This document shows positions 4,328-29,473 of a stretch of 54,132 nt of DNA, piece after piece. Source of the DNA: a virus; IMG/VR virus record IMGVR_UViG_3300042691_030710, positions 1 through 54,132 of that record; one strand, 5' to 3'. The translations under genes and the position numbers were made by a program. The notes below the pieces were generated by a model. It worked only from the letters and a program-made list of their open reading frames with translations, did not search any database and was not told where the DNA came from. Every line of letters starts with the position of its first letter. The first letter of the stretch is position 1.

Positions 4328-4350
4328 AAAGCGGGTATTATCCCGCTTTT
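4328..4350. terminator. Bidirectional terminator between converging genes
   Basis: The perfect 8-bp stem AAAGCGGG/CCCGCTTT has a 6-nt loop and is A-rich before and T-rich after, so it can act on both strands. It ends the plus-strand cluster. The last sense codons and stop of the minus-strand GIY-YIG gene are built into the stem. Confidence 0.8.
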
Positions 4351-4967
4351 ACAAATCTACCATTTTCATCTTTTTTAAGATTTCTATTTTTTAACCATAA
4401 TCTTCTTTCTTCGTACAATTTCGTTCCCTCTTCTTTTCCGTTTCTATCTATATACCAATCCAAAGTAAATCTACCTTTTGCTTTTGATTTTAATTTTTCT
4501 CTGGATTCATCGGAATGTTTTTTTCCGTACATTGGATTTTTTTCCAAAGGATGTGACATTTTTTTAACATTTTCTTCAGTATGTTTATATCCATTGGTAA
4601 AATTATTATATTTTTTACCATTTTCGCTCAAAAGTTTAATATAATCTAAATATTGCTGAGTATCACGTCTACCATCCCAAACATCACCACCATTTGTAGA
4701 ATATGTCATATTATATCCATTTTTAACCGAATTATATTTTATCATCATCATAAATTCAACTTCAGGTGCATCTTTTGAATTAACTTCGGCTATAATTTCT
4801 TTTGTAAAATTATCCCAACCATATTTTTTTATAGCATTATATAATACTGTGTTTTTAGTATCTCTTTTAGAACGAAGTTCATGCTGTTGCATTCTTTTAT
4901 TAAAATTTTTCGTTCTACCTATATAAACATTTCCGCTGGGGCTTGTTAATTTATAAATTATATCCAT
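4338..4967 (-). CDS. GIY-YIG homing endonuclease (Seg-like)
   Basis: This is a free-standing mobile DNA nuclease. From the ATG at 4967 the product has 209 residues; a TTG at 4994 would add nine, but the domain begins at the ATG ('MDIIYKLTSPSGNVYIGRT'). The GIY-YIG core has YKL and YIG plus the Arg of 'YIGRTKNFNKRMQQH', and the expected Glu and Asn follow in 'EVEFMMMIKYNSVKNGYNM'. Two NUMOD3-like DNA-binding repeats follow ('HTEENVKKMS' and 'YGKKHSDESREKLKSKAKG'). It lies just downstream of the major capsid gene, a frequent kind of target site. It has no close Shine-Dalgarno sequence, and its stop lies in the terminator stem. Confidence 0.88.
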   Translation of the reverse strand: MDIIYKLTSPSGNVYIGRTKNFNKRMQQHELRSKRDTKNTVLYNAIKKYGWDNFTKEIIAEVNSKDAPEVEFMMMIKYNSVKNGYNMTYSTNGGDVWDGRRDTQQYLDYIKLLSENGKKYNNFTNGYKHTEENVKKMSHPLEKNPMYGKKHSDESREKLKSKAKGRFTLDWYIDRNGKEEGTKLYEERRLWLKNRNLKKDENGRFVKAG

Positions 4968-5033
4968 AATATTAAATTTTCCAAAACAAATCAAATATAA
5001 TAAATATTTTTCTATTTTCCAAATTTAAAGCAT

Positions 5034-5083: not shown

Positions 5084-6712
5084 TTAGATGTTATTCAAAT
5101 CTTTGATGTAAATCTTCCCGTAATATTCCGGCCTTACCATTTTCTTAGCGTATCTAGTCATCACCCCGCGTCTTGGTGTAAAGTTTTGTGGGTCATACAC
5201 CAAAGGAGTCATAATCAATGGTACATAAGGAGCGTAAACCGCACCAGTCTCCAAGAAGTTAGAACCTCTGAAACCTAACAAGATTTCGTTAGAAGTCATA
5301 TAAGGGTTCTTATAAACAGTATATCTGTTAGCAAGAGCACCTACTTGAGATACACCAGCAGCGAACTTCATACTATCCTTATCAGCACTTACTACGAATC
5401 CAGGGATAGATTCCAAAATTGTACATACATCAGGAGATGCAACGATGAAGTTAGCACCACCTCTTAATGTCAATTGGTGAATCTTATTGGATACCTTATT
5501 GATTTTGATACCCAAAGTCTGGAACCAAGTGTTTTTCTGATAAGCCAATGATGAAGAACCACCAGTCCATGTACCATTTATCAATTCTTCACCTACAGTT
5601 GCAGACCAGTATTCAGTTGTCAATGCGTTGTTCTTCAACATATCCAAGATTTCCAAATCGATTTCCAATGAGATGTAATCACTCAACATAGAAGTCAATT
5701 CAGCTTCAGCATCAATTGAATGGTATGCATTCAAATCTTGTGCCAATTCAGGAGTCCATACTGCCTTCAACTTTCTAGTCTTAGCTACGATAGCCTCACT
5801 TCTCAATTCCAAATCGATTTCTGGAATCTGCAAATCAGTACCAGCATCGATACCAGTGTTAGCACCACTACCTTCGAATGGAGCTTTATCTTCGAAATCA
5901 CCTCTATTGAAATCAGTTGGTTGCTTAGAGTATGCAACTGAAACGTTAGTAGATGCCAATGAAGAAGAACCAGATACGAAGAATACGAAGTTATTTCCAG
6001 CAACTGCATGGAACTGAGCTACGTTAGAAACAATACCAGAACCAGATACTACGAATGAACGTACTGCTTCAATATCAGGAGTACTAAATGCAGATTGTGC
6101 AATTGTATATTTTACAATTTCACCAGCAGCGATAGATCCGGAAAGTGCAGCAGAATAACCAACTTCACCCCACTGAGCATCAGCAGCTGTAACTGAACCT
6201 GAAGCGATTGATACAGATGCATCATTTACTGAATAACCATATCTACCTTCACCATAAAGACCGTTTACAGCGGCTTTAGTTCTACCGAAATCACCATCAA
6301 ATGTAGATGTACCATTACCACCGAACAATGATTTACCATTGTAAGCTGGGTTACCAGGCTGAGCAGTTCCGTACTTGAAATCCAAGTAGAAAATAAGACC
6401 AGATGGTAAGTTCATAGGCTGAACTGAAACGAATTCTTTTGATGCAATGTCACCAAAAATTCTTCTAACCAAAGGTAGAGCTACACCACTCCACTCTTCA
6501 GAACCTGCAGATGTACCAGTTGAAGTAGCTTCATCCAATAATTGCTTAGCTTGGTTTTCCAACAAAACAGATACAGAATGCTGATCTCTTTCTTTCAAAC
6601 CTTCCAATAGGCCAGTTTTTTCCCACTTAGCCTTCAATCCTCTCGTCTGCTCTAACATTACAGATTGAGGATTTTTTCCTTCCATTAATTTACTTAAATC
6701 AAAATTTGCCAT
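5084..6712 (-). CDS. Major capsid protein, T4 gp23-like
   Basis: The 542-residue product is close to T4 gp23 in length. The N-terminal part resembles the gp23 propeptide: 'GLLEGL', 'VLLENQAKQLLDE', then ATSTG. T4 gp23 is cut by gp21 after an L-x-E site at about residue 65; here the matching site is LLDE|A after residue 61. After it come 'VALPLVRRIFGDIASKEFV' and 'VQPMNLPSGLIFYLDF', typical of the gp23 family (HK97 fold). The end 'TPRRGVMTRYAKKMVRP' also fits. It forms the hexamers of the head shell. An A-rich leader with no clear Shine-Dalgarno precedes it, and it is followed by a strong terminator. The scaffold gene is directly upstream, as in T4. Confidence 0.93.
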   Translation of the reverse strand: MANFDLSKLMEGKNPQSVMLEQTRGLKAKWEKTGLLEGLKERDQHSVSVLLENQAKQLLDEATSTGTSAGSEEWSGVALPLVRRIFGDIASKEFVSVQPMNLPSGLIFYLDFKYGTAQPGNPAYNGKSLFGGNGTSTFDGDFGRTKAAVNGLYGEGRYGYSVNDASVSIASGSVTAADAQWGEVGYSAALSGSIAAGEIVKYTIAQSAFSTPDIEAVRSFVVSGSGIVSNVAQFHAVAGNNFVFFVSGSSSLASTNVSVAYSKQPTDFNRGDFEDKAPFEGSGANTGIDAGTDLQIPEIDLELRSEAIVAKTRKLKAVWTPELAQDLNAYHSIDAEAELTSMLSDYISLEIDLEILDMLKNNALTTEYWSATVGEELINGTWTGGSSSLAYQKNTWFQTLGIKINKVSNKIHQLTLRGGANFIVASPDVCTILESIPGFVVSADKDSMKFAAGVSQVGALANRYTVYKNPYMTSNEILLGFRGSNFLETGAVYAPYVPLIMTPLVYDPQNFTPRRGVMTRYAKKMVRPEYYGKIYIKDLNNI

Positions 6713-17795: not shown

Positions 17796-19565
17796 TTAAA
17801 ATTTATCATCATCTAACAGATTTTTTTCATCTAAAAACGAAGTTTTTTCTGATATAATTTTCTTTTTCGATGATATTCCATTTATATATTCTCTAGCAAG
17901 CTTTTTACTATTCGATACTGAATAGGTATCTCTCTTTCTTTCTTTTTCGTTTTCTTTGTTACCCAATGGGTCTCTACCATATGGATGTTTATCCTTACCG
18001 TATGTATTTCCTTCTCTTGGTCTACCCCCCAAATCTGATTGTGATTTTAAAGAATTCTTTAACTCTTCCAAATCACCCTCAACATCAGTTGGTTCAGATG
18101 GTGCAGCCGGGTCGTTTCCTTCTTGTTCTATTGAATTATATCTAAATGTATCTTTAATATCATTTATTATTTTTCCTCTTTCATCATCAGCTTCACCCTT
18201 ACCCATTCCAAATACATTACCATATATCCAATCTTTTGATAGCATTTTAAGATTTTGGATATCAGTAGCCAATCTAACTTTTTCAGACCAAAGATTTACT
18301 TTTTCTTGCTCATAGATAGTAGATGGATTTGTTAATGATAATTCAAAATTAACCATTTCACTATCATCTATACCCTGAGCTGCTAAATGTATAATTGCTA
18401 TCTTAGTTAATTCACTTACGATAGTTCTTTGAATTCTTTCAATTGTTCTTGCAAATCTAACATCTTCAGCAGCAAGTGTTGCTTTACCGTTTACATTCTC
18501 ATCATATGATAAGTATGCTTTAGGTACTTTTAATGCTGCGAACAATCTTTTCTGTAAATATTCAATATCATCAATTGCCGCATATTCCAATCCACCCAAA
18601 TTATCTATAGAAGTTCCACTATCACCACCTCTAACAGGTAAGAAAAAATCTTCTGTTAGATTTTGCATATTATATTTCAAATTGTAATCACCACTGTTCT
18701 TATCAACAAAAGGAACTTTTTTCATTTTATTGATAATTTTTTGCATATAGTTATCAACCTCAGTTGGTGGAATGTTACCAATATCAATCTTAAATACTCT
18801 CTTTTCAGGAGCTCTCATAATTCTATGAATCAACATAGCATCTTCCATCAAAGATAATTGTTTCCAAATTCTTCTTGCAGATTCAATCATTGATTTACCA
18901 TACGGTAAGAAATTGGTATCTGATAGTAATCTGAAATGTGCCATCTCATAATTATCCCAATCTGTTTTACCAACTCTATCCATTTCAACCTTGAACTTAA
19001 CGAAATTTGCATTATTAGGATCAATTCCTTCAATACGTTCAGTATAATATACAGATTGAGGTATTACATTTATAATTCCTTTTCTTTCCGCAATTTCCAA
19101 ACCTAAAAAGAAATCACCGTATTTAACTAAGTTTCTAGTCCAAGGCCAAAGATTAAATTCAATATTTAAAATATCATAAAATAAATTATGAAGTATTTCT
19201 TTTATATTTTCATTCGATGAACGAATTTGTAATACATCTCCATATTCATTTTTAGTTGTACTTTCATCAGCATATATATCCAAAGCAGATGCAATAATAG
19301 GGTCATTATCCATTGCATCATAATCTCTAAACAGTTCTCTACGAACTTGATGATATGCCATTGATTGAGCACTAGATTGTGTTTCGTAAAATGATCTCTG
19401 TAGTTTTGTGTATCTATCTCTCAGTTGAACTAAGTTAGTAGTCATCTGTCTTTCATCAGTATCTACTACTTTTCTCTTACCATCCGAATCTATACGAACA
19501 ATTGCGGTAGTTGAAAATAATTTTCTCAACCTTCCAAAAAATGTATTATCGTTTTGTTCTGCCAT
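17796..19565 (-). CDS. Portal vertex protein, T4 gp20-like
   Basis: The 589-residue product has the length and landmarks of T4 gp20: 'DAMDNDPIIASALDIYADES' in the N-terminal third, 'YGDFFLGLEIAERKGI' and 'MRAPEKRVFKIDIGNIPP' in the core, then 'AEDVRFARTIERIQRTIV'. It forms the dodecameric DNA channel at one vertex, on which head assembly starts and to which the terminase docks. Gene order terminase, small genes, portal, protease, scaffold, capsid is T4-like. The Lys-rich C-terminal tail carries 'REGNTYGKDKHPYGRDP' and ends 'LDEKNLLDDDKF'. Confidence 0.93.
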   Translation of the reverse strand: MAEQNDNTFFGRLRKLFSTTAIVRIDSDGKRKVVDTDERQMTTNLVQLRDRYTKLQRSFYETQSSAQSMAYHQVRRELFRDYDAMDNDPIIASALDIYADESTTKNEYGDVLQIRSSNENIKEILHNLFYDILNIEFNLWPWTRNLVKYGDFFLGLEIAERKGIINVIPQSVYYTERIEGIDPNNANFVKFKVEMDRVGKTDWDNYEMAHFRLLSDTNFLPYGKSMIESARRIWKQLSLMEDAMLIHRIMRAPEKRVFKIDIGNIPPTEVDNYMQKIINKMKKVPFVDKNSGDYNLKYNMQNLTEDFFLPVRGGDSGTSIDNLGGLEYAAIDDIEYLQKRLFAALKVPKAYLSYDENVNGKATLAAEDVRFARTIERIQRTIVSELTKIAIIHLAAQGIDDSEMVNFELSLTNPSTIYEQEKVNLWSEKVRLATDIQNLKMLSKDWIYGNVFGMGKGEADDERGKIINDIKDTFRYNSIEQEGNDPAAPSEPTDVEGDLEELKNSLKSQSDLGGRPREGNTYGKDKHPYGRDPLGNKENEKERKRDTYSVSNSKKLAREYINGISSKKKIISEKTSFLDEKNLLDDDKF

Positions 19566-19830: not shown

Positions 19831-20540
19831 TACCAATAAGTATTCATATTTTCACCCCCACCTAATGCCTTCCAATATCTAGGTAGGTTACAACTCCAAT
19901 AACCTGCTGAAGTTCTATCTTTTTTATCTTTACAATTATGTCTATCCGCAAATGCCTTTCTTGCTTCAGGATCATTAATTTTTGCAGTTAATCCCCCTTT
20001 AGCATCACCGAAATTTACTTTTATCACATTACCCTTATCATTCTTAACATAAACTTGATATTTTTTAGGACCAGAACTTCTTTGAGGTTTACCCAATTCA
20101 ACATCTCTTCCCTGATATTCTGCTTCAGTTAATTCTTTTAATGGTTCATATCCCAATTGTGTACGAATTGGATTTAATTGTTTAATTATTTCTTTTTGTT
20201 TTTTAGAACCCGCAAAAGCCTTCATTGCTTTACTCAATAGTTTCATATGCTGTAGTTCCAAACTTTCTTCAGTAATTACGATTGGTATATCTAACATAAC
20301 TATTTTACCTTCAAACGTTCCAGTCTTACCAATATCAGTTTTTTCCAACATCCATTTATCAACCGCTGAAGATACTTCCAATAAACCTTTTTTATATAAA
20401 GTTCTTGCTTCGTTTATTAATCTAAAATAATTCTTACTTCCAAATCTATATACATTTTCATAAATTGGAGTTTTATTTTCTAAGTGAAATTTCAAACCTT
20501 CACTAATTCTAACTTTTTTATTTTCTGTAAGTAGTTTCAT
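19830..20540 (-). CDS. Head-region protein with DUF5872-like C-terminal domain
   Basis: The 236-residue product begins 'MKLLTENKKVRISEGLKFHL', again a short leader ending near Glu. The middle 'VYRFGSKNYFRLINEARTLY' recalls a domain in T4-like marine phages. The C-terminal 80 residues ('KYQVYVKNDKGNVIKVNFGD', 'ARKAFADRHNC', 'DRTSAGYWSCNLPRY') match a small conserved phage domain I know as DUF5872, with two Cys and His residues that may bind metal. Function unknown; probably a virion component given its place between terminase and portal. Confidence 0.68.
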   Translation of the reverse strand: MKLLTENKKVRISEGLKFHLENKTPIYENVYRFGSKNYFRLINEARTLYKKGLLEVSSAVDKWMLEKTDIGKTGTFEGKIVMLDIPIVITEESLELQHMKLLSKAMKAFAGSKKQKEIIKQLNPIRTQLGYEPLKELTEAEYQGRDVELGKPQRSSGPKKYQVYVKNDKGNVIKVNFGDAKGGLTAKINDPEARKAFADRHNCKDKKDRTSAGYWSCNLPRYWKALGGGENMNTYW

Positions 20541-20542
20541 AA

Positions 20543-20797
20543 TTAATAATCTTTAAATACACTATGAGTTGTAATTTTCATAGCCTGTTCCAACAATTCT
20601 TTTAAATATTTTTTAATATCAGTATCATCCACACCAGCATCTTCCAATGCATCTAATATAGTATTCACCGATTGTTTAAACTTATATCTACTCTTTTTTG
20701 GTAGTATTTCATCGAATGAATACACATCAATAAATTTTTTGGAAGTGTAACCCACATCAGGTTGTTTATTTATATTAAATATGTTTTTTAGTTTCAT
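20543..20797 (-). CDS. 84-residue helical protein of unknown function
   Basis: The product starts 'MKLKNIFNINKQPDVGYTSK' and has a C-terminal helical region ('SVNTILDALEDAGVDDTDIK'). It stops 2 nt before the DUF5872-like gene, so they are probably one operon. A TATTTATA element lies 17 nt upstream of its ATG. No family recognised. Confidence 0.65.
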   Translation of the reverse strand: MKLKNIFNINKQPDVGYTSKKFIDVYSFDEILPKKSRYKFKQSVNTILDALEDAGVDDTDIKKYLKELLEQAMKITTHSVFKDY

Positions 20798-20813
20798 ATT
20801 ATTTAGTTTATAC

Positions 20814-20823
20814 TATAAATATT
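20814..20823 (-). promoter_or_regulatory. Candidate late promoter element (AATATTTATA)
   Basis: The minus strand reads AATATTTATAGTATAAAC in the 41-nt gap after the terminase C-terminal ORF, 17 nt before the 84-residue gene. Confidence 0.45.
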
Positions 20824-20838
20824 AAAAAAAAATATAAA

Positions 20839-22032
20839 CTATAACCATTTGGATAAATCTTCAAACGATTCACCTACTCTCATTTTCCAAGGATTATCAT
20901 CTACAAATCCACCACCATACATACCATCATATACTGAATTTGTATTTGTCGAAATACCACCTAATGCCTGCTTTGTTAAATTAATACCTTGCTGTCTTAA
21001 TCTAAGTGCAGTATCTCTAACCCATAAACCAATACCAAATGCCATTACCAAGTCATCATTATAACCCTTCATAGCTTCAGCTCTACCATTTATAAAAATG
21101 AATGTAAATAATTCATCAATTAATCTTGTAGAACGAATTACTACATTTTTTTCTCTGAAGTATTCATCCAATTTAGATATTATAAGTGGTCGTGTTTTAG
21201 ATGTAGTTGAAAATCCTGCTACCAATCCTCTCTCTTCAGCTCTGTATCTATTTGTTATTTGATTTTCAACATCTACATATTTCAAATCTTTACTCATATA
21301 GAATAGATTTTTATATCCTCTATCTATAACCTGCTGAATTGCTGCCCAACCAATATTTGCGTTTTCTATTACTAAAAGTGCATCATTATATTCAGTTGAT
21401 AAACTCACTAAAAAATTACCAAAATCTTTGGTTTCTATCTTTCCTCTATATTCTGCAACCTGAGTAGCAGAATCTATATCTATTACATGAGCAGTTGAAA
21501 AGTCACTACCATCCCCTCTCGCAACGTCAGCTACAACCATATACGATTTGTTGAAATCTGGATATTCCCACTTCCACAGATTACTATCAATATATCCCTT
21601 TTCAATTGGAGGTTGGCAATATGTTTCTTTGTAGAACATTAGAGTTTCAGGATCAACTACAGTATCACCGGATGAAATGAAATCGCAATTATGTGATACA
21701 ACACCATCAACATTAAAAATATTACCACCAGCTACTTCAACTATATCAAATAATGAAATACCACTATTTATTATTTTTTTATTTATTACACTTACAATAC
21801 TACCATCATCACTATCTACATAATCTCCAACATTTAAAATATTAGCTGATATATCATTACCGTTTGATATAAACTTATGAGTTGTTGAACATTTTAGAAA
21901 CTTCCCGTTAGAAAATGCTATTTCATAGTGTTTATCTTTTGATAGCTTACGAACACCACCAAAAGGTTGAAAACCGGATGGAGTTAGTATTTCATATTTG
22001 GTATTTCCTTTAAAAATATAATTATCTATCAT
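20839..22032 (-). CDS. Terminase large subunit, C-terminal half with split-intein C fragment
   Basis: The 397-residue product begins with 115 residues of intein and continues with 282 residues of terminase nuclease. The intein part contains block B ('CSTTHKF'), block F ('LFDIVEVAGGNIFNVDGVV') and ends in the splice motif 'VVSHN' before Cys116. The terminase part begins 'CDFISSGDTVVDP', which matches the extein of T4-like TerL. The RNase H-like nuclease shows Asp169 in 'VVADVARGDGSDFS', 'LLVIENANIGW' and 'GYNDDLVMAFGIGLW'. The product makes headful cuts during DNA packaging once joined to the N-terminal half. Its ATG overlaps the endonuclease gene by 11 nt in another frame. Splicing in trans is predicted, not shown. 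Confidence 0.92.
   Translation of the reverse strand: MIDNYIFKGNTKYEILTPSGFQPFGGVRKLSKDKHYEIAFSNGKFLKCSTTHKFISNGNDISANILNVGDYVDSDDGSIVSVINKKIINSGISLFDIVEVAGGNIFNVDGVVSHNCDFISSGDTVVDPETLMFYKETYCQPPIEKGYIDSNLWKWEYPDFNKSYMVVADVARGDGSDFSTAHVIDIDSATQVAEYRGKIETKDFGNFLVSLSTEYNDALLVIENANIGWAAIQQVIDRGYKNLFYMSKDLKYVDVENQITNRYRAEERGLVAGFSTTSKTRPLIISKLDEYFREKNVVIRSTRLIDELFTFIFINGRAEAMKGYNDDLVMAFGIGLWVRDTALRLRQQGINLTKQALGGISTNTNSVYDGMYGGGFVDDNPWKMRVGESFEDLSKWL
21688..22032 (-). other. Split intein, C-terminal fragment (115 residues)
   Basis: It starts 'MIDNYIFKGNTKYEILTPSG' and ends with the penultimate His and final Asn, then Cys as +1 residue. A long C fragment with a very short N fragment is the atypical split known from AceL-TerL, where the break falls just after block A. 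Sequence resembles AceL-TerL from memory: 'ILTPSGFQPFGGVRKL' and the 'GVVSHN' end. Confidence 0.9.
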
Positions 22033-22756
22033 ATTTAATTCTTATAAATTCACATTTAAGTAGTTTTTTTATTTGATATTCCCTATCGATATCCTTTTGT
22101 TTTAAACTACCATCTGTATTAAAATGATGTGGTTCATCTATTTCAATTACAACATTTTTTTCTTTATCATAACCATCTACAAAATAACCTAATTCCTTTA
22201 TATAATATTCACCACCATTTTCTGCATGTTGAAAATTATATCCATATTTTTTTCCATATTCTTCTATAATTGGTATAGAATCTACATTATATCTAGGTGT
22301 TATTTGCCCAACTGTAGTTGATAAATAATTTAAAGTTGATAACCTTTGTTTTAGTTTACTCTCTTTTGTATGTTTTTTACCCAACCATGTCTTATGATAA
22401 TCTGGACATTTTCTACAATAAGTGTTCCATGTATAACTACTACCACATTCACATTTTAATTTATCTATATTACAATCAAGCTCTACAATAAACTTCAATC
22501 TATACATAAAATTATACGATCCCTTATATCTTTTATATTCTTTCATAACAGTTTCTAATATTTCTGTATGATGATATATAGATTTGTATAATTTTATATT
22601 TTCCTTTATTAAAGTTCTATTTTTTGCTTTTCCAAAATAATTTTGATAATAAAATTCATTCAATAATAATTTTTTAGTTTCATCAAATAAATAAATATCA
22701 TCTATATTATCTATTTCTTTTTTTATTTTAACCCAACCTTCTTTAACATAATTCAT
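22022..22756 (-). CDS. Homing endonuclease between the intein halves (Vsr/PD-(D/E)XK-like)
   Basis: The product has 244 residues from the ATG at 22756; a GTG at 22771 would add five. A helical N-terminal part is followed by a Cys motif ('LKCECGSSYTWNTYCRKCP', likely zinc), then a NUMOD3-like DNA-binding helix ('WLGKKHTKESKLKQRL'). The nuclease is 'YFVDGYDKEKNVVIEIDEPH', 'HF' and 'KQKDIDREYQIK', then 'CEFIRIKYD'. This fits the EDxHD/Vsr-like fold of endonucleases found inside fractured genes. It should cut intein-free terL alleles and drive homing. The end overlaps the C-terminal terminase ORF by 11 nt, so the two are probably coupled. Confidence 0.85.
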   Translation of the reverse strand: MNYVKEGWVKIKKEIDNIDDIYLFDETKKLLLNEFYYQNYFGKAKNRTLIKENIKLYKSIYHHTEILETVMKEYKRYKGSYNFMYRLKFIVELDCNIDKLKCECGSSYTWNTYCRKCPDYHKTWLGKKHTKESKLKQRLSTLNYLSTTVGQITPRYNVDSIPIIEEYGKKYGYNFQHAENGGEYYIKELGYFVDGYDKEKNVVIEIDEPHHFNTDGSLKQKDIDREYQIKKLLKCEFIRIKYDR

Positions 22757-22780
22757 AATTTTTACATTCACATTCTTGTG

Positions 22781-22790
22781 TATAAATATA
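22781..22790 (-). promoter_or_regulatory. Candidate promoter element before the endonuclease gene
   Basis: TATATTTATA on the minus strand fills part of the 23-38 nt gap between the stop of the N-terminal terminase ORF and the endonuclease start. It may let the endonuclease and the C-terminal terminase half be transcribed separately. Confidence 0.35.
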
Positions 22791-22794
22791 AAAA

Positions 22795-23631
22795 TTATAA
22801 GTTTTCATACAATTCTTCGAGTGTAATTTCCTTTATATCACCAGTTTCAATATCTTTAATTGTCACCCGTGAAGTTCCCCATAAACAATCACATTCCTGT
22901 GCCGCAATTTTAGTTCCTAATAAACGAGTTTGTTCATCTCTCCACGTTTGGTCTCTCTCAGGATGAACAGTCCAATGTAAACTAATTGGCATGAATGGAT
23001 TAGTACCATCTTCAGCACCTACCCAAGTTTTGTGAAACCAATTACCCACACCGTTTGGAGTAGATAATGCAATACAACTACCACCGGTTGATAGGGTTGA
23101 TTGTGCAGATGCCCATATTTCATCGATATCATCAATGAATGCAGCTTCATCAAAAATAAGTAAGGATAACGCTTCAGAACGTCCTGCATCAGGTGAAGAT
23201 GAAATTGCTTTTATCTGAGAACCATTTTTCAATCGGAGTGATAATTTGTTATCTTCCAATGAACCACCTTTTAACCAACTTGGTAAGAGTTCATGCATCA
23301 CCCTAACTTTAGTTACTAAGTTTTTAGCAACTTCTTGCTTAGTTGCAATAACCAACACATTAAAATCAGAATTAAAAAGCATTTTCCATAAGGAATATCC
23401 TGCTGATAATGTAGAGATACCGGTTTGTCTTGATTTTAAAACAATATTGAATCGATTATTCTTAAATTCAGTTAGAGTTTTTTCCTGAAATGGATATAAA
23501 TGAAATTGTATTTTACCCCTAGTCGGATGTTGTATCATACAATACTTCCGCATAAAATAAATAGGGTCTTTAGAACATCTTACATATTCTTCAGCTACAA
23601 TCTCTTTTAATGTTTTTTTCTGAGTACTCAT
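22795..23631 (-). CDS. Terminase large subunit, N-terminal half with split-intein N fragment
   Basis: The 278-residue product is the ATPase half of TerL plus 30 residues of intein. Residues 1-248: Walker A-like 'VLKSRQTGIST' (about 64-74), Walker B 'LLIFDEAAF' with Asp161 and Glu162, and motif III 'STPNG' (190-194). The extein ends 'KIAAQECD'; joining it to the C-terminal half gives QECD-CDFISSGDT, which matches the usual uninterrupted TerL region. Residues 249-278 begin 'CLWGTSRVTI', intein block A. The complete spliced protein would be 530 residues. As in T4 gp17, this half powers DNA translocation into the head at the portal. Confidence 0.93.
   Translation of the reverse strand: MSTQKKTLKEIVAEEYVRCSKDPIYFMRKYCMIQHPTRGKIQFHLYPFQEKTLTEFKNNRFNIVLKSRQTGISTLSAGYSLWKMLFNSDFNVLVIATKQEVAKNLVTKVRVMHELLPSWLKGGSLEDNKLSLRLKNGSQIKAISSSPDAGRSEALSLLIFDEAAFIDDIDEIWASAQSTLSTGGSCIALSTPNGVGNWFHKTWVGAEDGTNPFMPISLHWTVHPERDQTWRDEQTRLLGTKIAAQECDCLWGTSRVTIKDIETGDIKEITLEELYENL
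22798..22887 (-). other. Split intein, N-terminal fragment (30 residues)
   Basis: It starts with the nucleophile Cys ('CLWGTSRVTIKDIETGDI') and ends 'LEELYENL' at a stop codon. The very short fragment covers only block A. Confidence 0.88.
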
Positions 23632-23637
23632 ATAACA

Positions 23638-24318
23638 TTAATCGATAGGTTCATTTAATAAATCATAGTTTTTATCTTTCAATACATCCCATAATTTATT
23701 TCTAATTTCTTTAAGTTGTGAAACTTCTTTAGAAATATTTTCAATATCACCTAAAATTTCAGTTCTTAACTCATCAGCATCCCTTTCCATTCTCCACTTC
23801 TCAATACTACCATCTTCATTTACATATTCGTATTCTTGCTTTACATCACTATACGCTTGATTTAATTGAGATAATACATCGTTTCCATGTGATATCATAT
23901 TTTGAATGATACGATATTGTTCATACTCAGTCCACAAACCATCTTCTTTTATTTTGGACTCCTTTTCAACTAAACAATTTGAACAATATCCTGTTTTTCG
24001 TATTAACTTTTTATCAGTATATCCATATTTGGATTTACTACACGTATCACTCTTACATCTATTTTTGGCAGAAATCCAATTACGAACTTCGGCCATAGTT
24101 TCTGTTAATTTAGACTGTTGAACTCTTCCATATGAACGTTGCTCCCATGTTACACCATCGGAATCAGTCCATACTTCACCAATTTCTCTTTTTCTACTAC
24201 GTTCTCCACTATCGTAACCTAATTTAGTATCGGTTTCATATTCTTTACCACGTAACACCATATCCACAAGTTTTCTTCTTGTAGGATGCATATATTTTTT
24301 TTGAAATTCTTTAGCCAT
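23638..24318 (-). CDS. Protein upstream of terL, possible small terminase subunit
   Basis: The 226-residue product begins 'MAKEFQKKYMHPTRRKLVDM'. It has a Cys pattern likely to bind zinc: 'NRCKSDTCSKSKYGYT' then 'GYCSNCLVEKE'. A long helical, coiled-coil-like region follows ('MERDADELRTEILGDIENIS'). It ends 6 nt before the TerL start, so the two are one operon. The small terminase subunit often precedes TerL and is helical, but T4 gp16 lacks a zinc site, so this is a positional guess. Alternative: unrelated DNA-binding protein. Confidence 0.5.
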   Translation of the reverse strand: MAKEFQKKYMHPTRRKLVDMVLRGKEYETDTKLGYDSGERSRKREIGEVWTDSDGVTWEQRSYGRVQQSKLTETMAEVRNWISAKNRCKSDTCSKSKYGYTDKKLIRKTGYCSNCLVEKESKIKEDGLWTEYEQYRIIQNMISHGNDVLSQLNQAYSDVKQEYEYVNEDGSIEKWRMERDADELRTEILGDIENISKEVSQLKEIRNKLWDVLKDKNYDLLNEPID

Positions 24319-24335
24319 AAAATATCTATTATATA

Positions 24336-24345
24336 TATAAATATA
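24336..24345 (-). promoter_or_regulatory. Candidate late promoter element (TATATTTATA)
   Basis: TATATTTATA on the minus strand lies 18 nt before the terminase-region operon and inside a long AT repeat, so it could be chance. Confidence 0.3.
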
Positions 24346-24351
24346 TATAAA

Positions 24352-25179
24352 TTAGATTTTATGTATTTTTTCTAATTCTTTTAATCTTTTATAATAAGTT
24401 GGAGTAGATATATCAAGCTCAGCACATATATGTTTTACTTTGTACCCTTTTTGCTTTAACTCCAATATTTTATCTTTATCAGCAGAATGTTTAGTATCCC
24501 AATATATTTTTCTACCTTCAAGAGCTTTCTCCATTAAACTATCCCAATCAACAGTTTTCATAGCTTCTTTTGTTTTTTGAGATATAATCTGTTTTTGAAT
24601 GTTAGCTACTTCCACCCCATATCTATCTTCAAAAGTTATTCCCTTCTGAGCTTCACTTATTTTTTTCTTTGTCTCTTCACTATGTGTATAACCCATTTCT
24701 ACTAATTTGTATGCACCCTTTCGTGCAATTTCACGTTGTTTTTCTTTATCAATTTTATCAAACGTATAATGTGATAATCCATTTTTAAATCCACGCTTTC
24801 TACCCTCAATTGATTGTTCATACATTTCAGGCGATACTATTTCACTTAATGGTTTACCCATTTTTTTCTTGTTAGCAATAACAGCATAGTCATTATATCC
24901 ACCTGCGCCACCTTCAACCATATTATACCCGTTCTCTATTGAGTTATATTCTCTTATATAGTGTATTTCTTTTTTATTTAATTCATCTTTTGTTATGGCA
25001 GTATCAATCACAACCCAATCAAAATTATCAACACCATATGATTTAAGAGCCTTATAAAATTTACTCTTACCCACTTCAATCATTTTTAAGTGAGCATTCT
25101 TTCTAACTTTTAATGTATGTATAGTTTGGCCAATATATACTTTACCACTTATTTTATTTTCAACCTTATATATTATCAT
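24352..25179 (-). CDS. GIY-YIG homing endonuclease with C-terminal helix-turn-helix
   Basis: The 275-residue product opens with a GIY-YIG nuclease ('MIIYKVENKISGKVYIGQT'), with the conserved Glu in 'DELNKKEIHYIREYNSIENG' and the Asn in GYNM. NUMOD3-like segments follow ('THSEETKKKISEAQKG'), and the end is a helix-turn-helix ('YKVKHICAELDISTPTYYKR'). It is a free-standing mobile endonuclease close to the terminase genes. The leader on the minus strand has TATAAATA and AGGAGG 43-59 nt upstream, unlike its neighbours, but AGGAGG is too far away to act as its ribosome-binding site. Confidence 0.88.
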   Translation of the reverse strand: MIIYKVENKISGKVYIGQTIHTLKVRKNAHLKMIEVGKSKFYKALKSYGVDNFDWVVIDTAITKDELNKKEIHYIREYNSIENGYNMVEGGAGGYNDYAVIANKKKMGKPLSEIVSPEMYEQSIEGRKRGFKNGLSHYTFDKIDKEKQREIARKGAYKLVEMGYTHSEETKKKISEAQKGITFEDRYGVEVANIQKQIISQKTKEAMKTVDWDSLMEKALEGRKIYWDTKHSADKDKILELKQKGYKVKHICAELDISTPTYYKRLKELEKIHKI

Positions 25180-25243
25180 AGTATTTATTTCTCTATAATA
25201 ACTATAAGAAAAAAATAAAAACCTCCTGTATATTTATATAATT

Positions 25244-28200
25244 TTACCTATTATCAAAGAATATTCCCAACAACTGATTTGCTGCAGCAAAACTTCCGGT
25301 TAATTTCATCGTAGTACCGTTATATACAAAAACTATGCCTTCTATTGGAACTATTTTTTCAAATCCACCAATATCATTCAATCTCTGTAGTTCCAATTTC
25401 AATTTAGCAATTTGAGCCTCACTTCCTTTCGCCTCAACATCTTTTATAGTTTTTTCTAGTCTACCCACCATTGCTCTTCTAGCACTATCAGGGTTTACAG
25501 TTAATACAGAACTCATAAATGAAAGAACTTCAGCACCAACACCTAAAAATATTTTTTCAAATTTCATTAGATTTTCTTTACTTATTTTAGTTTGGTCTTC
25601 TTTATCTATTTTCTCAGCCCAGTTACGAATTTTTTCATCTTGAATATCTTTTATTCTAAAACTCTTATCCATAAATGCCCATCGTTTAACCAATCCTATT
25701 TTATGTTGCCCATCTAAGTTAGGTGCGTTTTTATTTACAAATTCTTCCCACCATTTTTGATGATATTCTGCTACACCCTGATTATCACTCAATCCATATT
25801 CATTTTGTAGTTTAGATATCATTCCCAAAAATTTGGATTGTGATTTATTCAATTCTGTATTTTTGGGTAATTTAACTACAGGAGGTCCTTGAATTGTATA
25901 TTTAGATTGTACATTTTGATTTATTTGCTTAATCATACCTGCCAATATTCTACCAGCAGATTGGTCTTCACCAATTATATTACCATCTTCATCATATTCA
26001 AAAGTTCCATGAAATACCAATAAAGCCTGTCCATAAGGTATTACATTTACTGAAGTTGGGTATATAACTTCCAAATTCATAAACTTAGAACCACCTCCGA
26101 ATATTTTATCTTTTTGTTTTTGAGTAAGTTTATCGATAGCTGCGGAAAGGTCTTTCATAGCAAAGTTATATGCATCGGTCAATCCACCTCTATTTGCAAA
26201 TTTAGATGCAACTGCGTTTATATCCATTGCATCCTTACCTTTGTTTTTAAGATGTGATTTATTTCTAGCAGCAACCAATCTACCATTCACCCAACTTACT
26301 GCAAGAGCCTGCCCATCAGTTTTCTCTCTAGTTAATTCCAACTCCCCATTCAATGCTTTCTTAACTATATCTTTTAACTGGCCAAACGTTAAATTAACAT
26401 CAATATCAAACGGATGATTCATATGTCCGTATGCCCCACCCTCTTTGATTAAATTTTCAGAAGTAGTATTTTTATTATATGGTATTCTCCATTCAATTTC
26501 ATCTTTAGTATTAGTCATTGAAGTTTCACTACCAGTATAAAGTTTAGAATTTTTTATGTTATATTTGGAAATTATTGATTTGATTTTTTTAACGCTGTTT
26601 GGATATTTTTTATAGTTTACAGTAACTACAAACATATTTTGACTATGCCAAAAATCAACACCATCTAATTTTTCTATTTCATGGATAGCTTTATTTAAAT
26701 TATTTTCATTTAATTTAAATTCTTCTATTAAATTTTTACCAATAACATTCTCTTTCAATGAATCTAATCTTTTTACAATCAAATTAAATATCTTTTCATT
26801 GAATTTAGGATATGCTTTAGTAAAAAGTTTTTTTCTATCTTCAATATCACCACTACCTAACCACTTTCTAACATCAGTACCACTTACATCACTTAATGGG
26901 GGTGATACATAGACATATCCTGCATCTACATATCCAACATCAACATTACCTTTGTATGGTGTAAAATACTTACCACCCAATCGTTGTGCATCTTTACCAC
27001 CAACTACTGTAATAAATCCAGTATTATTCTCATCAAATTTTTTAAGAATTTCAACAGGAGCATATGGGTTTTTTATCTGAACAATTTTGTCGGAAGGTAT
27101 ACCAAACATACCTGCCATTATTAGCTTTTTCTCATTAAAACTAAAAGGAGATTTTACATTATCAGTTTTATCAGATGTTCCTATATATACTTTATCTTTA
27201 CCGAATTTTTTTACTAAATGTTGATATGTTGCAAAATGCCCTTTATGGAAAGGTTGAAATCTTCCAGCATAAACCACAACATAATCTTTAACCGATTCTG
27301 TTATATGGTTGGATTCTTTTTTAAGTGTTCTTTTTTGTAATACTAATTTATTTATTTGTGAAAATATATCTGCAATTTCTTTATCCAACTGTTTTTCTTC
27401 AACACTCATTGGTGATTCTATATCAACATTTGAATATAATTTTTTCTTTTTAGCTATTAATACATCTACTTTTTTTAATAAATCATTTTTTACTTTATCT
27501 AAATCTTTGATTACATCAGATGGATTTGATTCATCCAATTCATCACTATATAAACCTTTCATAGGCGCAGATGGTTGAATATGAGAACGCATCATAGTGT
27601 ATTCATTTTGTTTCTCAGCATCCAATTTAGCACGTAATTTATCTATTCGTTTTTTATGGTTATCCATCCATTTTTGATCAGGATATCCAATCATTAGATT
27701 TTCATTTGTATCAGTTTCTCTAACACTTACTTTAGGTCTACCAAAAATTGTTTCTCTGATTTTAGTTCCATTTTCTAAAGTTCTCTCATACTTACCTTTA
27801 TCTCCAATCATTTTTAAATTTGTGTTTGGAAATATAGATTGCCCAACCTTTTCAGATGATACATAAGGTACATTGTTTTTATACAATACATGCTCTAATG
27901 CATCAGATGCTTCAATCCAATATCCAGGTGTTTTTAATATAGAAACTAATTTTTTAATTATATCATCTTTAGAATTTTTATCACCATCATGCCCAATACC
28001 CTGTATTTTTATTCCATTTGGTGATTTTCTCCCAAAGATAACTGCATCCGCATGCGGGTCAGTATCGTTATCTATACTCTTCCAAAAAATACTTCTAGTT
28101 AAATCACTTTTACTTGTAACAAACGAACCAAGTTTAGTAGAATTATATGCAGTTTTTATCAAATCTATAATATTATCAGATACAACTAATACTTCTTTAT

Positions 28201-29473
28201 CATCTAATTGATACCAAACATTTTTTTTAGGAACTATATCGGGATTAAAACTAGCTTCCTCAATAGTAGCTAATTTAGTATAATACTTTGGATTCTCAGC
28301 CAAATGATCCATTGCAATCTCTCTAGCAATTTTTGCGTTTGCCGTATGCTCCATTTCTACTTTAACACCCTTAATCAACTCAGATTTTATCGAATCTATT
28401 CCAACACCATGCTTTTTTGCAATATCGGATAATGTCATACCTGAAGATAATCCACCGGATACTTTTTCGATTTCAAACTTTAGTTCAGGAGATGGAGTTT
28501 TAAAATCATCCTTTCTCATTATAGTTTTAGCAATAGCTTTATTGGCTTGCTTCATAAAAGGAATATTGATTTTAGTTCTATTATCTTTAGCAACTATCTC
28601 ACCGTACTTCTTTAAGAAATCAACAAACTGGTCTTTCTTTCTACTCAATCTTTTGAAAAATCCAGTAAGTTCTGCAGCTGATATTGGTTTTTTATTTCTA
28701 GGGTCAATTAATCTATCCAAAAAGTGTTTATCCGTTATTACAACATCCAATGGGTCTAATTGCTTATCCGCATATTTATCAATTTGCTGTAAATCAGACA
28801 TCGGTATTTCACTTAAAAATTCTTCAAACTGAGGATCTTTTCTAAGTTCAGCAATTACTTCTGCATATGCCTCATCTATCAATCGGTATTTCAATAATGG
28901 TTTACCATTTATGGTAATATCACCCTTTTCATTTTTTCCAATATCTTTCACAATTATTTTTTTATTTTTAAATTTACCACCCAAAACAGTATCACCTACA
29001 TTTATTGGAATAGAAATATCCTCATCCACTTTTTCCAATTCCCAATATCTAGGATTTTTAGGTTTTAGTGTCTTAGGTGTTACATTTTTCCATTTATCAA
29101 TTTGATATGGTGTGAGAGGAGAACCTTTAGCAGGTTCAGTAACTCCTTGTAATTTATAAATTACTTTTCGGAATTGAGATTGGGTATCTTTACTCTTACC
29201 CTTACCTCTCATATAATCTGATTTCGGTTTATCCAATTGAATGTACCCACCTTGCTTAAACCAGTTTTCAGGTTTAGCTCCGTTTAGTATTCTTTTTGTA
29301 CCATCCGCATAGTATCCAACCTCAGGTTCACCAGAATCAATTGCAGCTGATTCATTTATATTTTTTGATATATCCGTAGAATCGTTTTGATTAAAAAATG
29401 ATTGTTCAACTGATTGAAAATCTTTTAAAACTTCATCCACTAAATATTTTCCTAATTTACTCATTACGTACAT
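25244..29473 (-). CDS. Large fusion: HxGH nucleotidyltransferase plus ligase-like domain
   Basis: The 1409-residue product (alternative ATG at 29464) appears to be a virion-packaged multienzyme. The N-terminal region has linkers such as 'KNINESAAIDSG' and a domain with 'VITDKHFLDRLIDPRNKK' (about 246), seen in T4-like phages but unnamed. About 730-910 is an HxGH nucleotidyltransferase: 'VVVYAGRFQPFHKGHFATY' and 'PPLSDVSGTDVRKWL'; such enzymes make NAD or CDP/ADP-sugar type products. About 1010-1409 looks like a covalent nucleotidyltransferase (DNA/RNA ligase): motif I 'TREKTDGQALAV' (KTDG), then 'FMNLEVIYP', 'EGIVFVYNG' and 'MKLTGSF'. Substrates unknown. Linkers 'ITESVKDY' and 'KENVIGKNLIEEFKLNEN' are likely protease sites. 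Confidence 0.75.
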   Translation of the reverse strand: MYVMSKLGKYLVDEVLKDFQSVEQSFFNQNDSTDISKNINESAAIDSGEPEVGYYADGTKRILNGAKPENWFKQGGYIQLDKPKSDYMRGKGKSKDTQSQFRKVIYKLQGVTEPAKGSPLTPYQIDKWKNVTPKTLKPKNPRYWELEKVDEDISIPINVGDTVLGGKFKNKKIIVKDIGKNEKGDITINGKPLLKYRLIDEAYAEVIAELRKDPQFEEFLSEIPMSDLQQIDKYADKQLDPLDVVITDKHFLDRLIDPRNKKPISAAELTGFFKRLSRKKDQFVDFLKKYGEIVAKDNRTKINIPFMKQANKAIAKTIMRKDDFKTPSPELKFEIEKVSGGLSSGMTLSDIAKKHGVGIDSIKSELIKGVKVEMEHTANAKIAREIAMDHLAENPKYYTKLATIEEASFNPDIVPKKNVWYQLDDKEVLVVSDNIIDLIKTAYNSTKLGSFVTSKSDLTRSIFWKSIDNDTDPHADAVIFGRKSPNGIKIQGIGHDGDKNSKDDIIKKLVSILKTPGYWIEASDALEHVLYKNNVPYVSSEKVGQSIFPNTNLKMIGDKGKYERTLENGTKIRETIFGRPKVSVRETDTNENLMIGYPDQKWMDNHKKRIDKLRAKLDAEKQNEYTMMRSHIQPSAPMKGLYSDELDESNPSDVIKDLDKVKNDLLKKVDVLIAKKKKLYSNVDIESPMSVEEKQLDKEIADIFSQINKLVLQKRTLKKESNHITESVKDYVVVYAGRFQPFHKGHFATYQHLVKKFGKDKVYIGTSDKTDNVKSPFSFNEKKLIMAGMFGIPSDKIVQIKNPYAPVEILKKFDENNTGFITVVGGKDAQRLGGKYFTPYKGNVDVGYVDAGYVYVSPPLSDVSGTDVRKWLGSGDIEDRKKLFTKAYPKFNEKIFNLIVKRLDSLKENVIGKNLIEEFKLNENNLNKAIHEIEKLDGVDFWHSQNMFVVTVNYKKYPNSVKKIKSIISKYNIKNSKLYTGSETSMTNTKDEIEWRIPYNKNTTSENLIKEGGAYGHMNHPFDIDVNLTFGQLKDIVKKALNGELELTREKTDGQALAVSWVNGRLVAARNKSHLKNKGKDAMDINAVASKFANRGGLTDAYNFAMKDLSAAIDKLTQKQKDKIFGGGSKFMNLEVIYPTSVNVIPYGQALLVFHGTFEYDEDGNIIGEDQSAGRILAGMIKQINQNVQSKYTIQGPPVVKLPKNTELNKSQSKFLGMISKLQNEYGLSDNQGVAEYHQKWWEEFVNKNAPNLDGQHKIGLVKRWAFMDKSFRIKDIQDEKIRNWAEKIDKEDQTKISKENLMKFEKIFLGVGAEVLSFMSSVLTVNPDSARRAMVGRLEKTIKDVEAKGSEAQIAKLKLELQRLNDIGGFEKIVPIEGIVFVYNGTTMKLTGSFAAANQLLGIFFDNR

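What the first reader, a model, noticed from the sequence alone, without database searches (positions are those of the whole stretch)
20839..23631. Terminase large subunit made by predicted protein trans-splicing from a fractured gene
TerL is on two ORFs. The first ends with a 30-residue intein N fragment starting at Cys ('CLWGTSRVTI'), the second starts with a 115-residue C fragment ending 'VVSHN' before Cys. A homing endonuclease gene lies between them and overlaps the second ORF by 11 nt. Joining the exteins restores QECD-CDFISSGDT, the normal TerL sequence. The very short N part is the atypical split known from AceL-TerL, and the gene order matches the 'fractured gene' layout. An essential packaging motor would depend on trans-splicing.
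Basis: partly seen in the sequence, partly recalled or inferred. Interest (0 to 1): 0.9.

Follow-up and report, generated by a model that had tools for sequence, protein, structure and literature searches.

The report
Phage packaging motor with split intein
A virus of bacteria carries its DNA-packaging motor gene broken into two pieces by a movable cassette, and the two protein pieces almost certainly stitch themselves back together; this is a new example of a known arrangement, but about sixty related cassettes show it moving between viruses, decaying and re-fusing, and carrying a copy of its own landing site that may act as its off-switch.

Summary
TerL is split: 248-aa N-extein + 30-aa IntN, then a homing endonuclease gene (HEG), then 115-aa IntC + 282-aa C-extein. 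IntC matches the engineered Cat TerL intein (PDB 6dsl, E=1.7e-17), and a contiguous natural homologue folds like VidaL and Cat. The layout is the known 'fractured gene'; AceL-TerL and GOS-TerL are functional precedents. So the locus is a new member of a known kind, and dependence on trans-splicing is very likely, though not shown here. Surveying 62 non-redundant related cassettes added three things. (1) Mobility: two cassettes are 99.4% identical over 1,208 nt inside TerL exteins only 91%/82.5% identical; the window's TerL itself nests among intein-free relatives. (2) A decay series: full HEG (48), damaged (5), absent with intein still split (7), contiguous (2). (3) A 17/19-nt copy of the TerL insertion site just upstream of the HEG, found in many diverged lineages and conserved as DNA irrespective of reading frame; the junction ranks first of ~1,380 TerL offsets. 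The copy resembles the operator by which T4 I-TevI represses itself. It is the novel part and needs a binding test.

The parts
22888..23631 (-). TerL N-extein (248 aa, ATPase domain; Walker A SRQTGIST, Walker B LLIFDEAAF)
   Evidence: Pfam Terminase_6N 1.3e-9, PHROG terL 8.7e-49, T4 gp17, motifs
22798..22887 (-). IntN, 30 aa, Cys1 (CLWGTSRVTI...)
   Evidence: sequence; aligned with IntN of homologous loci; no PDB hit on its own
22762..22780 (-). Copy of the TerL intein insertion site (CACAAGAATGTGAATGTAA, 17/19 to consensus CACAAGAATGTGAT|TGTGA) in the HEG leader; predicted operator
22022..22756 (-). Free-standing homing endonuclease gene, 244 aa from ATG (ORF from GTG 22771 is 249 aa); four-Cys zinc ribbon and C-terminal VSR/EDxHD-like nuclease domain
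   Evidence: HEG alignments A2, A5; Pfam NUMOD3/DUF559/MTES_1575 in some homologues; weak Foldseek to I-Bth0305I and VSR
22406..22453 (-). Zinc-ribbon region of the HEG (invariant C102, C104, C114, C117)
   Evidence: invariant columns of A5
22022..22032 (-). 11-nt HEG stop / ORF2 start overlap; probable translational coupling
   Evidence: overlap of 1-26 nt in 46 of 48 full-HEG loci
21688..22032 (-). IntC, 115 aa, block B CSTTH, ends VVSHN
   Evidence: PDB 6dsl_B Cat intein E=1.7e-17, gp41-1 0.006; A1, A3; catalytic residues
20842..21687 (-). TerL C-extein (282 aa, nuclease domain), starts with Cys+1
   Evidence: PHROG terminase 6.9e-13, tblastn to phage TerL, T4 gp17

Best explanation
The locus is a mobile 'fractured gene' cassette of 1.2 kb sitting at the ATPase/nuclease boundary of a T4-like phage terminase (QECD|CDF). 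Two TerL half-proteins are made, probably from one transcript. The 30-aa IntN docks into the nearly complete 115-aa IntC, and class-1 splicing (Cys1, block-B His, His-Asn, Cys+1) joins the exteins into a 530-aa motor. The HEG between the halves makes a VSR/EDxHD-like endonuclease that is inferred to cut intein-free terL at the insertion site, so that repair copies the whole IntN-HEG-IntC cassette. A copy of that target site upstream of the HEG most likely lets the endonuclease bind there and restrain its own expression, as T4 I-TevI does. Shown by sequence: anatomy, homology, selection on both intein halves, transfer of cassettes between diverged terL alleles, reality and conservation of the site copy. 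Inferred: splicing in the infected cell, cutting by this HEG, and the operator role (about 50%). The confidence given is for the split-intein cassette and trans-splicing, not for the operator.
For: IntC to Cat intein E=1.7e-17. Contiguous homologue L190 folds (pLDDT 84) onto VidaL 6vgv and Cat 6dsl as the two best PDB hits. Terminal His-Asn and Cys+1 in 62/62 cassettes, Cys1 in 58/62 at this junction, the other four being inserted two codons upstream where a Cys is also present. IntN/IntC dN/dS mostly 0.05-0.4. 62 non-redundant cassettes: 48 full HEG, 4 truncated, 1 with a stop, 7 no HEG yet split, 2 contiguous. Transfer: L138 vs L142 cassette 99.4%, exteins 91/82.5%; L229 vs L142 98.9% vs 88/84%. 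Window TerL nested with intein-free alleles, SH-aLRT 99. Site copy: rank 1 of ~1,380 offsets, z=5.4; only two matches in 54 kb, 0 expected; 0 of 3,000 shuffles; core 89% conserved vs 56-63% in flanks and in all reading-frame relations. I-TevI precedent: PMC2988022. Functional precedents for these inteins: PMC11766414.
Against: No experiment. IntN alone finds no PDB match. HEG fold assignment is weak: best endonuclease hit I-Bth0305I E=0.26, prob 0.72. The site copy is missing from compact leaders (L095, L096, L129, L130, L132, L165), is weak or degraded in the QECDYL/QEGDYL group, and is absent from a second fractured gene in L010; no promoter overlap was established. No clear co-conversion tract flanks the window's own insertion.
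Confidence: 0.9

Rival explanations
1. TerL works as two separate pieces without ligation, like the genes-in-pieces ribonucleotide reductase of phage Aeh1.
For: HEG insertion can split a gene whose halves still work together; MobE in Aeh1 nrdA splits a critical region (PMC2988022; PMC10448857).
Against: Intein catalytic residues and both intein halves are conserved under purifying selection even after HEG loss; contiguous alleles keep a complete intein.
Confidence: 0.04
2. The split is an assembly error or a dead gene in a defective phage.
For: The window is a metagenomic contig.
Against: An identical arrangement in a second contig and about 60 non-redundant homologous cassettes in many metagenomes, reading frames open, dN/dS well below 1.
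Confidence: 0.01
3. An RNA intron, not a split intein, carries the HEG and joins the halves at RNA level.
For: A spliced terL with a neighbouring HEG is known in phage ICP1 (PMC10448857).
Against: No Rfam match up to E=1 in 20500-25300; HEG-less alleles L092/L094 keep IntN and IntC as overlapping out-of-frame ORFs with nothing left to splice out.
Confidence: 0.01
4. The target-site copy upstream of the HEG is a fossil of how the HEG first inserted at its own cut site, with no present role (alternative to the operator reading only).
For: It spans only the left side and the first few bases of the site, lies next to the HEG, and was lost in several compact leaders.
Against: It is much better conserved than the flanking leader among HEGs only about 55-70% identical and irrespective of reading frame; neutral DNA would have diverged.
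Confidence: 0.4

Closest known systems
AceL-TerL, GOS-TerL, Cat and VidaL atypical split inteins
   Same: TerL host protein for AceL/GOS, short IntN and long IntC (window 30/115; AceL 25/104, GOS 37/115, Cat 30/104; PMC11766414), Cys1/Cys+1 as AceL and Cat, HINT fold.
   Different: Window IntC is a clear but moderately similar relative of Cat. Here the whole contiguous locus with its HEG, leader and flanking phage genes is seen, with intein-free relatives.
Fractured genes (Dassa et al. 2009, PMC2677866; not readable here)
   Same: Gene order extein-IntN / free-standing HEG / IntC-extein.
   Different: Site copy in the HEG leader, HEG decay series, contiguous alleles and transfer between terL alleles are read here; whether any was noted in 2009 could not be checked.
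Aeromonas phage PX29 genes 17A/17B
   Same: Split TerL with N- and C-intein annotated in a cultured phage.
   Different: Its HEG is GIY-YIG and fused to the C-intein part, not a separate VSR/EDxHD-like gene.
T4 I-TevI operator / homing-site mimicry
   Same: A copy of the homing site immediately upstream of the endonuclease ORF (I-TevI 15/20 nt; PMC2988022; window 17/19 nt).
   Different: I-TevI is an intron-encoded GIY-YIG enzyme with shown binding and repression and a known late promoter; none is shown here.

Membership tests
Atypical split TerL inteins (AceL/GOS/Cat) | Short IntN (about 16-37 aa) on one ORF and long IntC (about 104-115 aa) on another | tested here: met
   30 and 115 aa; comparison values from PMC11766414
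Atypical split TerL inteins (AceL/GOS/Cat) | Sequence homology to a characterised member | tested here: met
   IntC vs 6dsl_B (Cat) E=1.7e-17
Atypical split TerL inteins (AceL/GOS/Cat) | Class-1 residues: Cys/Ser1, block-B His, penultimate His, terminal Asn, Cys+1 | tested here: met
   C1, CSTTH, HN, C+1 in the window; conserved in the set
Atypical split TerL inteins (AceL/GOS/Cat) | HINT fold | tested here: met
   Contiguous homologue L190 (IntC 61% identical to the window): best PDB hits VidaL and Cat; the window's own two halves were not co-folded
Atypical split TerL inteins (AceL/GOS/Cat) | Trans-splicing activity | not testable with these tools
   needs co-expression
Fractured genes | Extein-IntN / HEG / IntC-extein order at one locus | tested here: met
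Fractured genes | HEG of the EDxHD (VSR-like) family | tested here: inconclusive
   Invariant E183, D194, E205, H211, D222 and a DUF559/MTES_1575 signal in a few homologues; Foldseek I-Bth0305I prob 0.72, VSR 0.54, both E>0.1
T4-like large terminase | Homology to gp17 with ATPase and nuclease motifs | tested here: met
   gp17 3ezk E=1e-40 over residues 10-472; motifs
HEG autorepression by homing-site mimicry (I-TevI type) | Homing-site-like sequence directly upstream of the HEG | tested here: met
   17/19 nt; pooled rank 1 of ~1,380 offsets; shuffles
HEG autorepression by homing-site mimicry (I-TevI type) | Site overlaps the HEG promoter; endonuclease binds and represses without efficient cutting | not testable with these tools
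   promoter type of this phage is unknown; binding needs protein

The most novel reading that the evidence does not exclude
Endonucleases of fractured terL genes control themselves through a copy of their own target site kept as DNA just upstream of their gene. This damps the endonuclease inside an essential packaging gene, and after HEG loss the intein can stay split or become contiguous, so that split inteins arise and revert as by-products of a homing cycle.
Probability: 0.45. Interest if true: 0.65.

Novelty: new member of a known kind. Interest (0 to 1): 0.5.

Why it matters
An essential viral motor is very likely made by protein trans-splicing. The survey gives complete loci, natural intein-free counterparts (including the cultured Flavobacterium phage immuto) and HEG-minus and contiguous alleles, so homing of a split intein and the origin of split inteins become directly testable. 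The conserved target-site copy is a specific, cheap hypothesis about how these nucleases are kept in check. The short IntN makes the family useful for protein labelling.

Tried and rejected
Group I/II intron: no Rfam hit and not compatible with HEG-less alleles. Assembly artefact: second contig plus about 60 loci. Co-conversion tract around the window's own insertion: only a mild, uninterpretable dip in identity. Site copy as conserved HEG peptide: rejected, since all three frame relations occur. Site copy as a general fractured-gene rule: a second fractured gene in L010 (KxDG ligase-like gene) has none. HEG by phmmer/hmmsearch against PDB: nothing significant. IntC relatives in bacterial genome contigs: none. 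Dassa et al. 2009 not held, so priority for the leader copy and decay series could not be checked. Per-locus best-match tests are noisy in AT-rich leaders, hence the pooled test.

Full report
Check of the observation. The three ORFs are exactly as described: ORF1 22795-23631(-), 278 aa, ends with a 30-aa IntN beginning at Cys after QECD; ORF2 20839-22032(-), 397 aa, begins with a 115-aa IntC ending VVSHN before Cys; a HEG ORF 22022-22771(-) lies between and overlaps ORF2 by 11 nt. Joining the exteins gives a 530-aa terminase whose match to T4 gp17 (3ezk, E=1e-40) runs through the junction at the ATPase/nuclease boundary. Walker A, Walker B and the three nuclease motifs are present. A second IMG/VR contig is identical over 12.1 kb apart from one 17-nt indel elsewhere.

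Is it an intein? IntC matches the Cat intein, a consensus of atypical TerL inteins, at E=1.7e-17, and gp41-1 weakly. Pfam's general intein model is below its curated cut-off, so annotation pipelines would probably miss it. In 62 non-redundant cassettes the terminal His-Asn and Cys+1 are universal; Cys1 is at the same place in 58, and in the other four (L171, L173, L175, L180) the intein sits two codons upstream, where a Cys also exists. IntN and IntC evolve under purifying selection (dN/dS mostly 0.05-0.4), as expected if TerL depends on them.

Family survey. Scans with ORF2, IntC, the HEG alignment and the IntC alignment gave intein-free terL alleles (76 read at the junction) and 62 non-redundant intein alleles: 48 with full HEG, 4 with truncated HEG, 1 with an interrupted HEG, 7 without HEG but still split, 2 contiguous. 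HEG/IntC stop-start overlaps of 1-26 nt occur in 46 of the 48, which suggests translational coupling. In L187 and L229 the HEG has lost its middle but its leader and last residues remain; in L092/L094 the whole HEG is missing between short repeats (ATTATAA) present at both ends of the HEG in L093, leaving IntN and IntC as overlapping ORFs in different frames; L190/L191 read straight through ...SELYNTN-MIFKQN..., keeping a Met where split alleles start IntC, which suggests re-fusion. No IntC relatives were found in the genome collection of 84,980 bacterial and archaeal species, so the cassette appears confined to phages that are not found as prophages there.

Mobility. On a tree of joined exteins the window's TerL sits inside an intein-free clade (SH-aLRT 99 with three intact alleles, nearest 91% identical), away from the intein carriers L010/L015, and the cultured Flavobacterium phage immuto (intein-free) sits with intein carriers L143/L151 (DNA about 88-95% identical to L143 in most windows across the empty site). 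The sharpest evidence is L138 vs L142: the cassette is 99.4% identical over 1,208 nt while the adjoining exteins are 91% and 82.5% identical; L139 vs L144 and L229 vs L142 repeat the pattern, and extein synonymous divergence exceeds that of the cassette many-fold. Cassettes therefore move between diverged terL genes with boundaries close to the splice sites, as homing predicts. That this endonuclease does the cutting is inferred.

The HEG. Its real start is probably ATG 22756. It has an invariant four-Cys zinc ribbon and an invariant E183-D194-E205-H211-D222 series. Some homologues hit NUMOD3, DUF559 and MTES_1575 weakly. Foldseek is weak, but its most relevant named nuclease hits are I-Bth0305I (EDxHD) and VSR. 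I call it VSR/EDxHD-like and mark membership inconclusive.

A new feature: the target-site copy. Between the IntN stop and the HEG start the window has CACAAGAATGTGAATGTAA (22762-22780, minus strand), 17/19 identical to the consensus of intein-free terL junctions, CACAAGAATGTGAT|TGTGA. In the 54-kb window only this place and the terL junction itself match within 3 mismatches; 0 expected. In an unbiased test over 30 representative loci, every 19-mer of each locus's own terL was matched against its leader: the junction offset ranked first of about 1,380 (z=5.4) and the ten best offsets were all at the junction. The core is 89% conserved among 17 loci against 56-63% in the flanks, and the copy stands in all three frame relations to the HEG and to IntN, so it is conserved as DNA. 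In a second group it is read in frame at the end of IntN (...QECDYL*, QEGDYL*) with an inverted partner nearby. It is missing in some compact leaders and in a second fractured gene of L010. T4 I-TevI has the same architecture: an operator 15/20 identical to its homing site just upstream of its ORF, bound as tightly as the homing site but cut about 100-fold less, giving autorepression (PMC2988022). I put the operator reading at about 50% and a functionless fossil of HEG insertion at about 40%.

Comparison and verdict. What it works like: AceL-TerL/GOS-TerL/Cat trans-splicing in a fractured gene. Membership in the atypical TerL split inteins is met on all features testable here; membership of the HEG in EDxHD is inconclusive. 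The locus is a new member of a known kind. The added value is the family-wide evidence for movement, HEG decay and re-fusion, and the target-site copy.

Noticed in passing
L010 787-1968 (also L181, L183): A second fractured gene in relatives: N-extein ...REK + 98-aa IntN, a HEG sharing the nuclease half (71%) but with a different N-terminal DNA-binding part, then a short IntC (...ILVHN) + TDGQALAISW extein. It breaks the KxDG motif of the gene that is intact in the window at 25244-29473(-).
   Followed up: partly
L094 2283-5576: Portal protein gene carrying a contiguous intein with an HNH-like endonuclease (CLGPDT...VHN-C) in the lineage that lost the terL HEG; the window's portal (17796-19565) is intact.
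   Followed up: no
L096 about 2239 / L098: In-frame TGA inside IntC (CSDNHPF*SDND) in two 99.9% identical contigs: decayed intein or recoding.
   Followed up: no
window 24352-25179 and 4338-4994: Two GIY-YIG homing endonuclease-like genes, one two genes upstream of terL and one next to the gene at 5084-6712 (probable major capsid).
   Followed up: no
L001 1346-4688 (Vibrio phage VP-1), L246/L247: TerL with two different inteins, one inside the ATPase domain and one at the QECD-type site.
   Followed up: no
L133-L137, L143, L151, L158-L160, L163: IntN ends in QECDYL/QEGDYL and is followed by an inverted copy of the target-site core, giving a possible hairpin before the HEG (e.g. L158 TCAAGAACATGAC...GTCGCATTCTTGTGA).
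   Followed up: partly
L171, L173, L175, L180: Same intein family inserted two codons upstream in terL (QE|CD.DF instead of QECD|CDF); in L170, L171 and L173 the leader instead encodes an extra zinc-finger-like stretch.
   Followed up: partly
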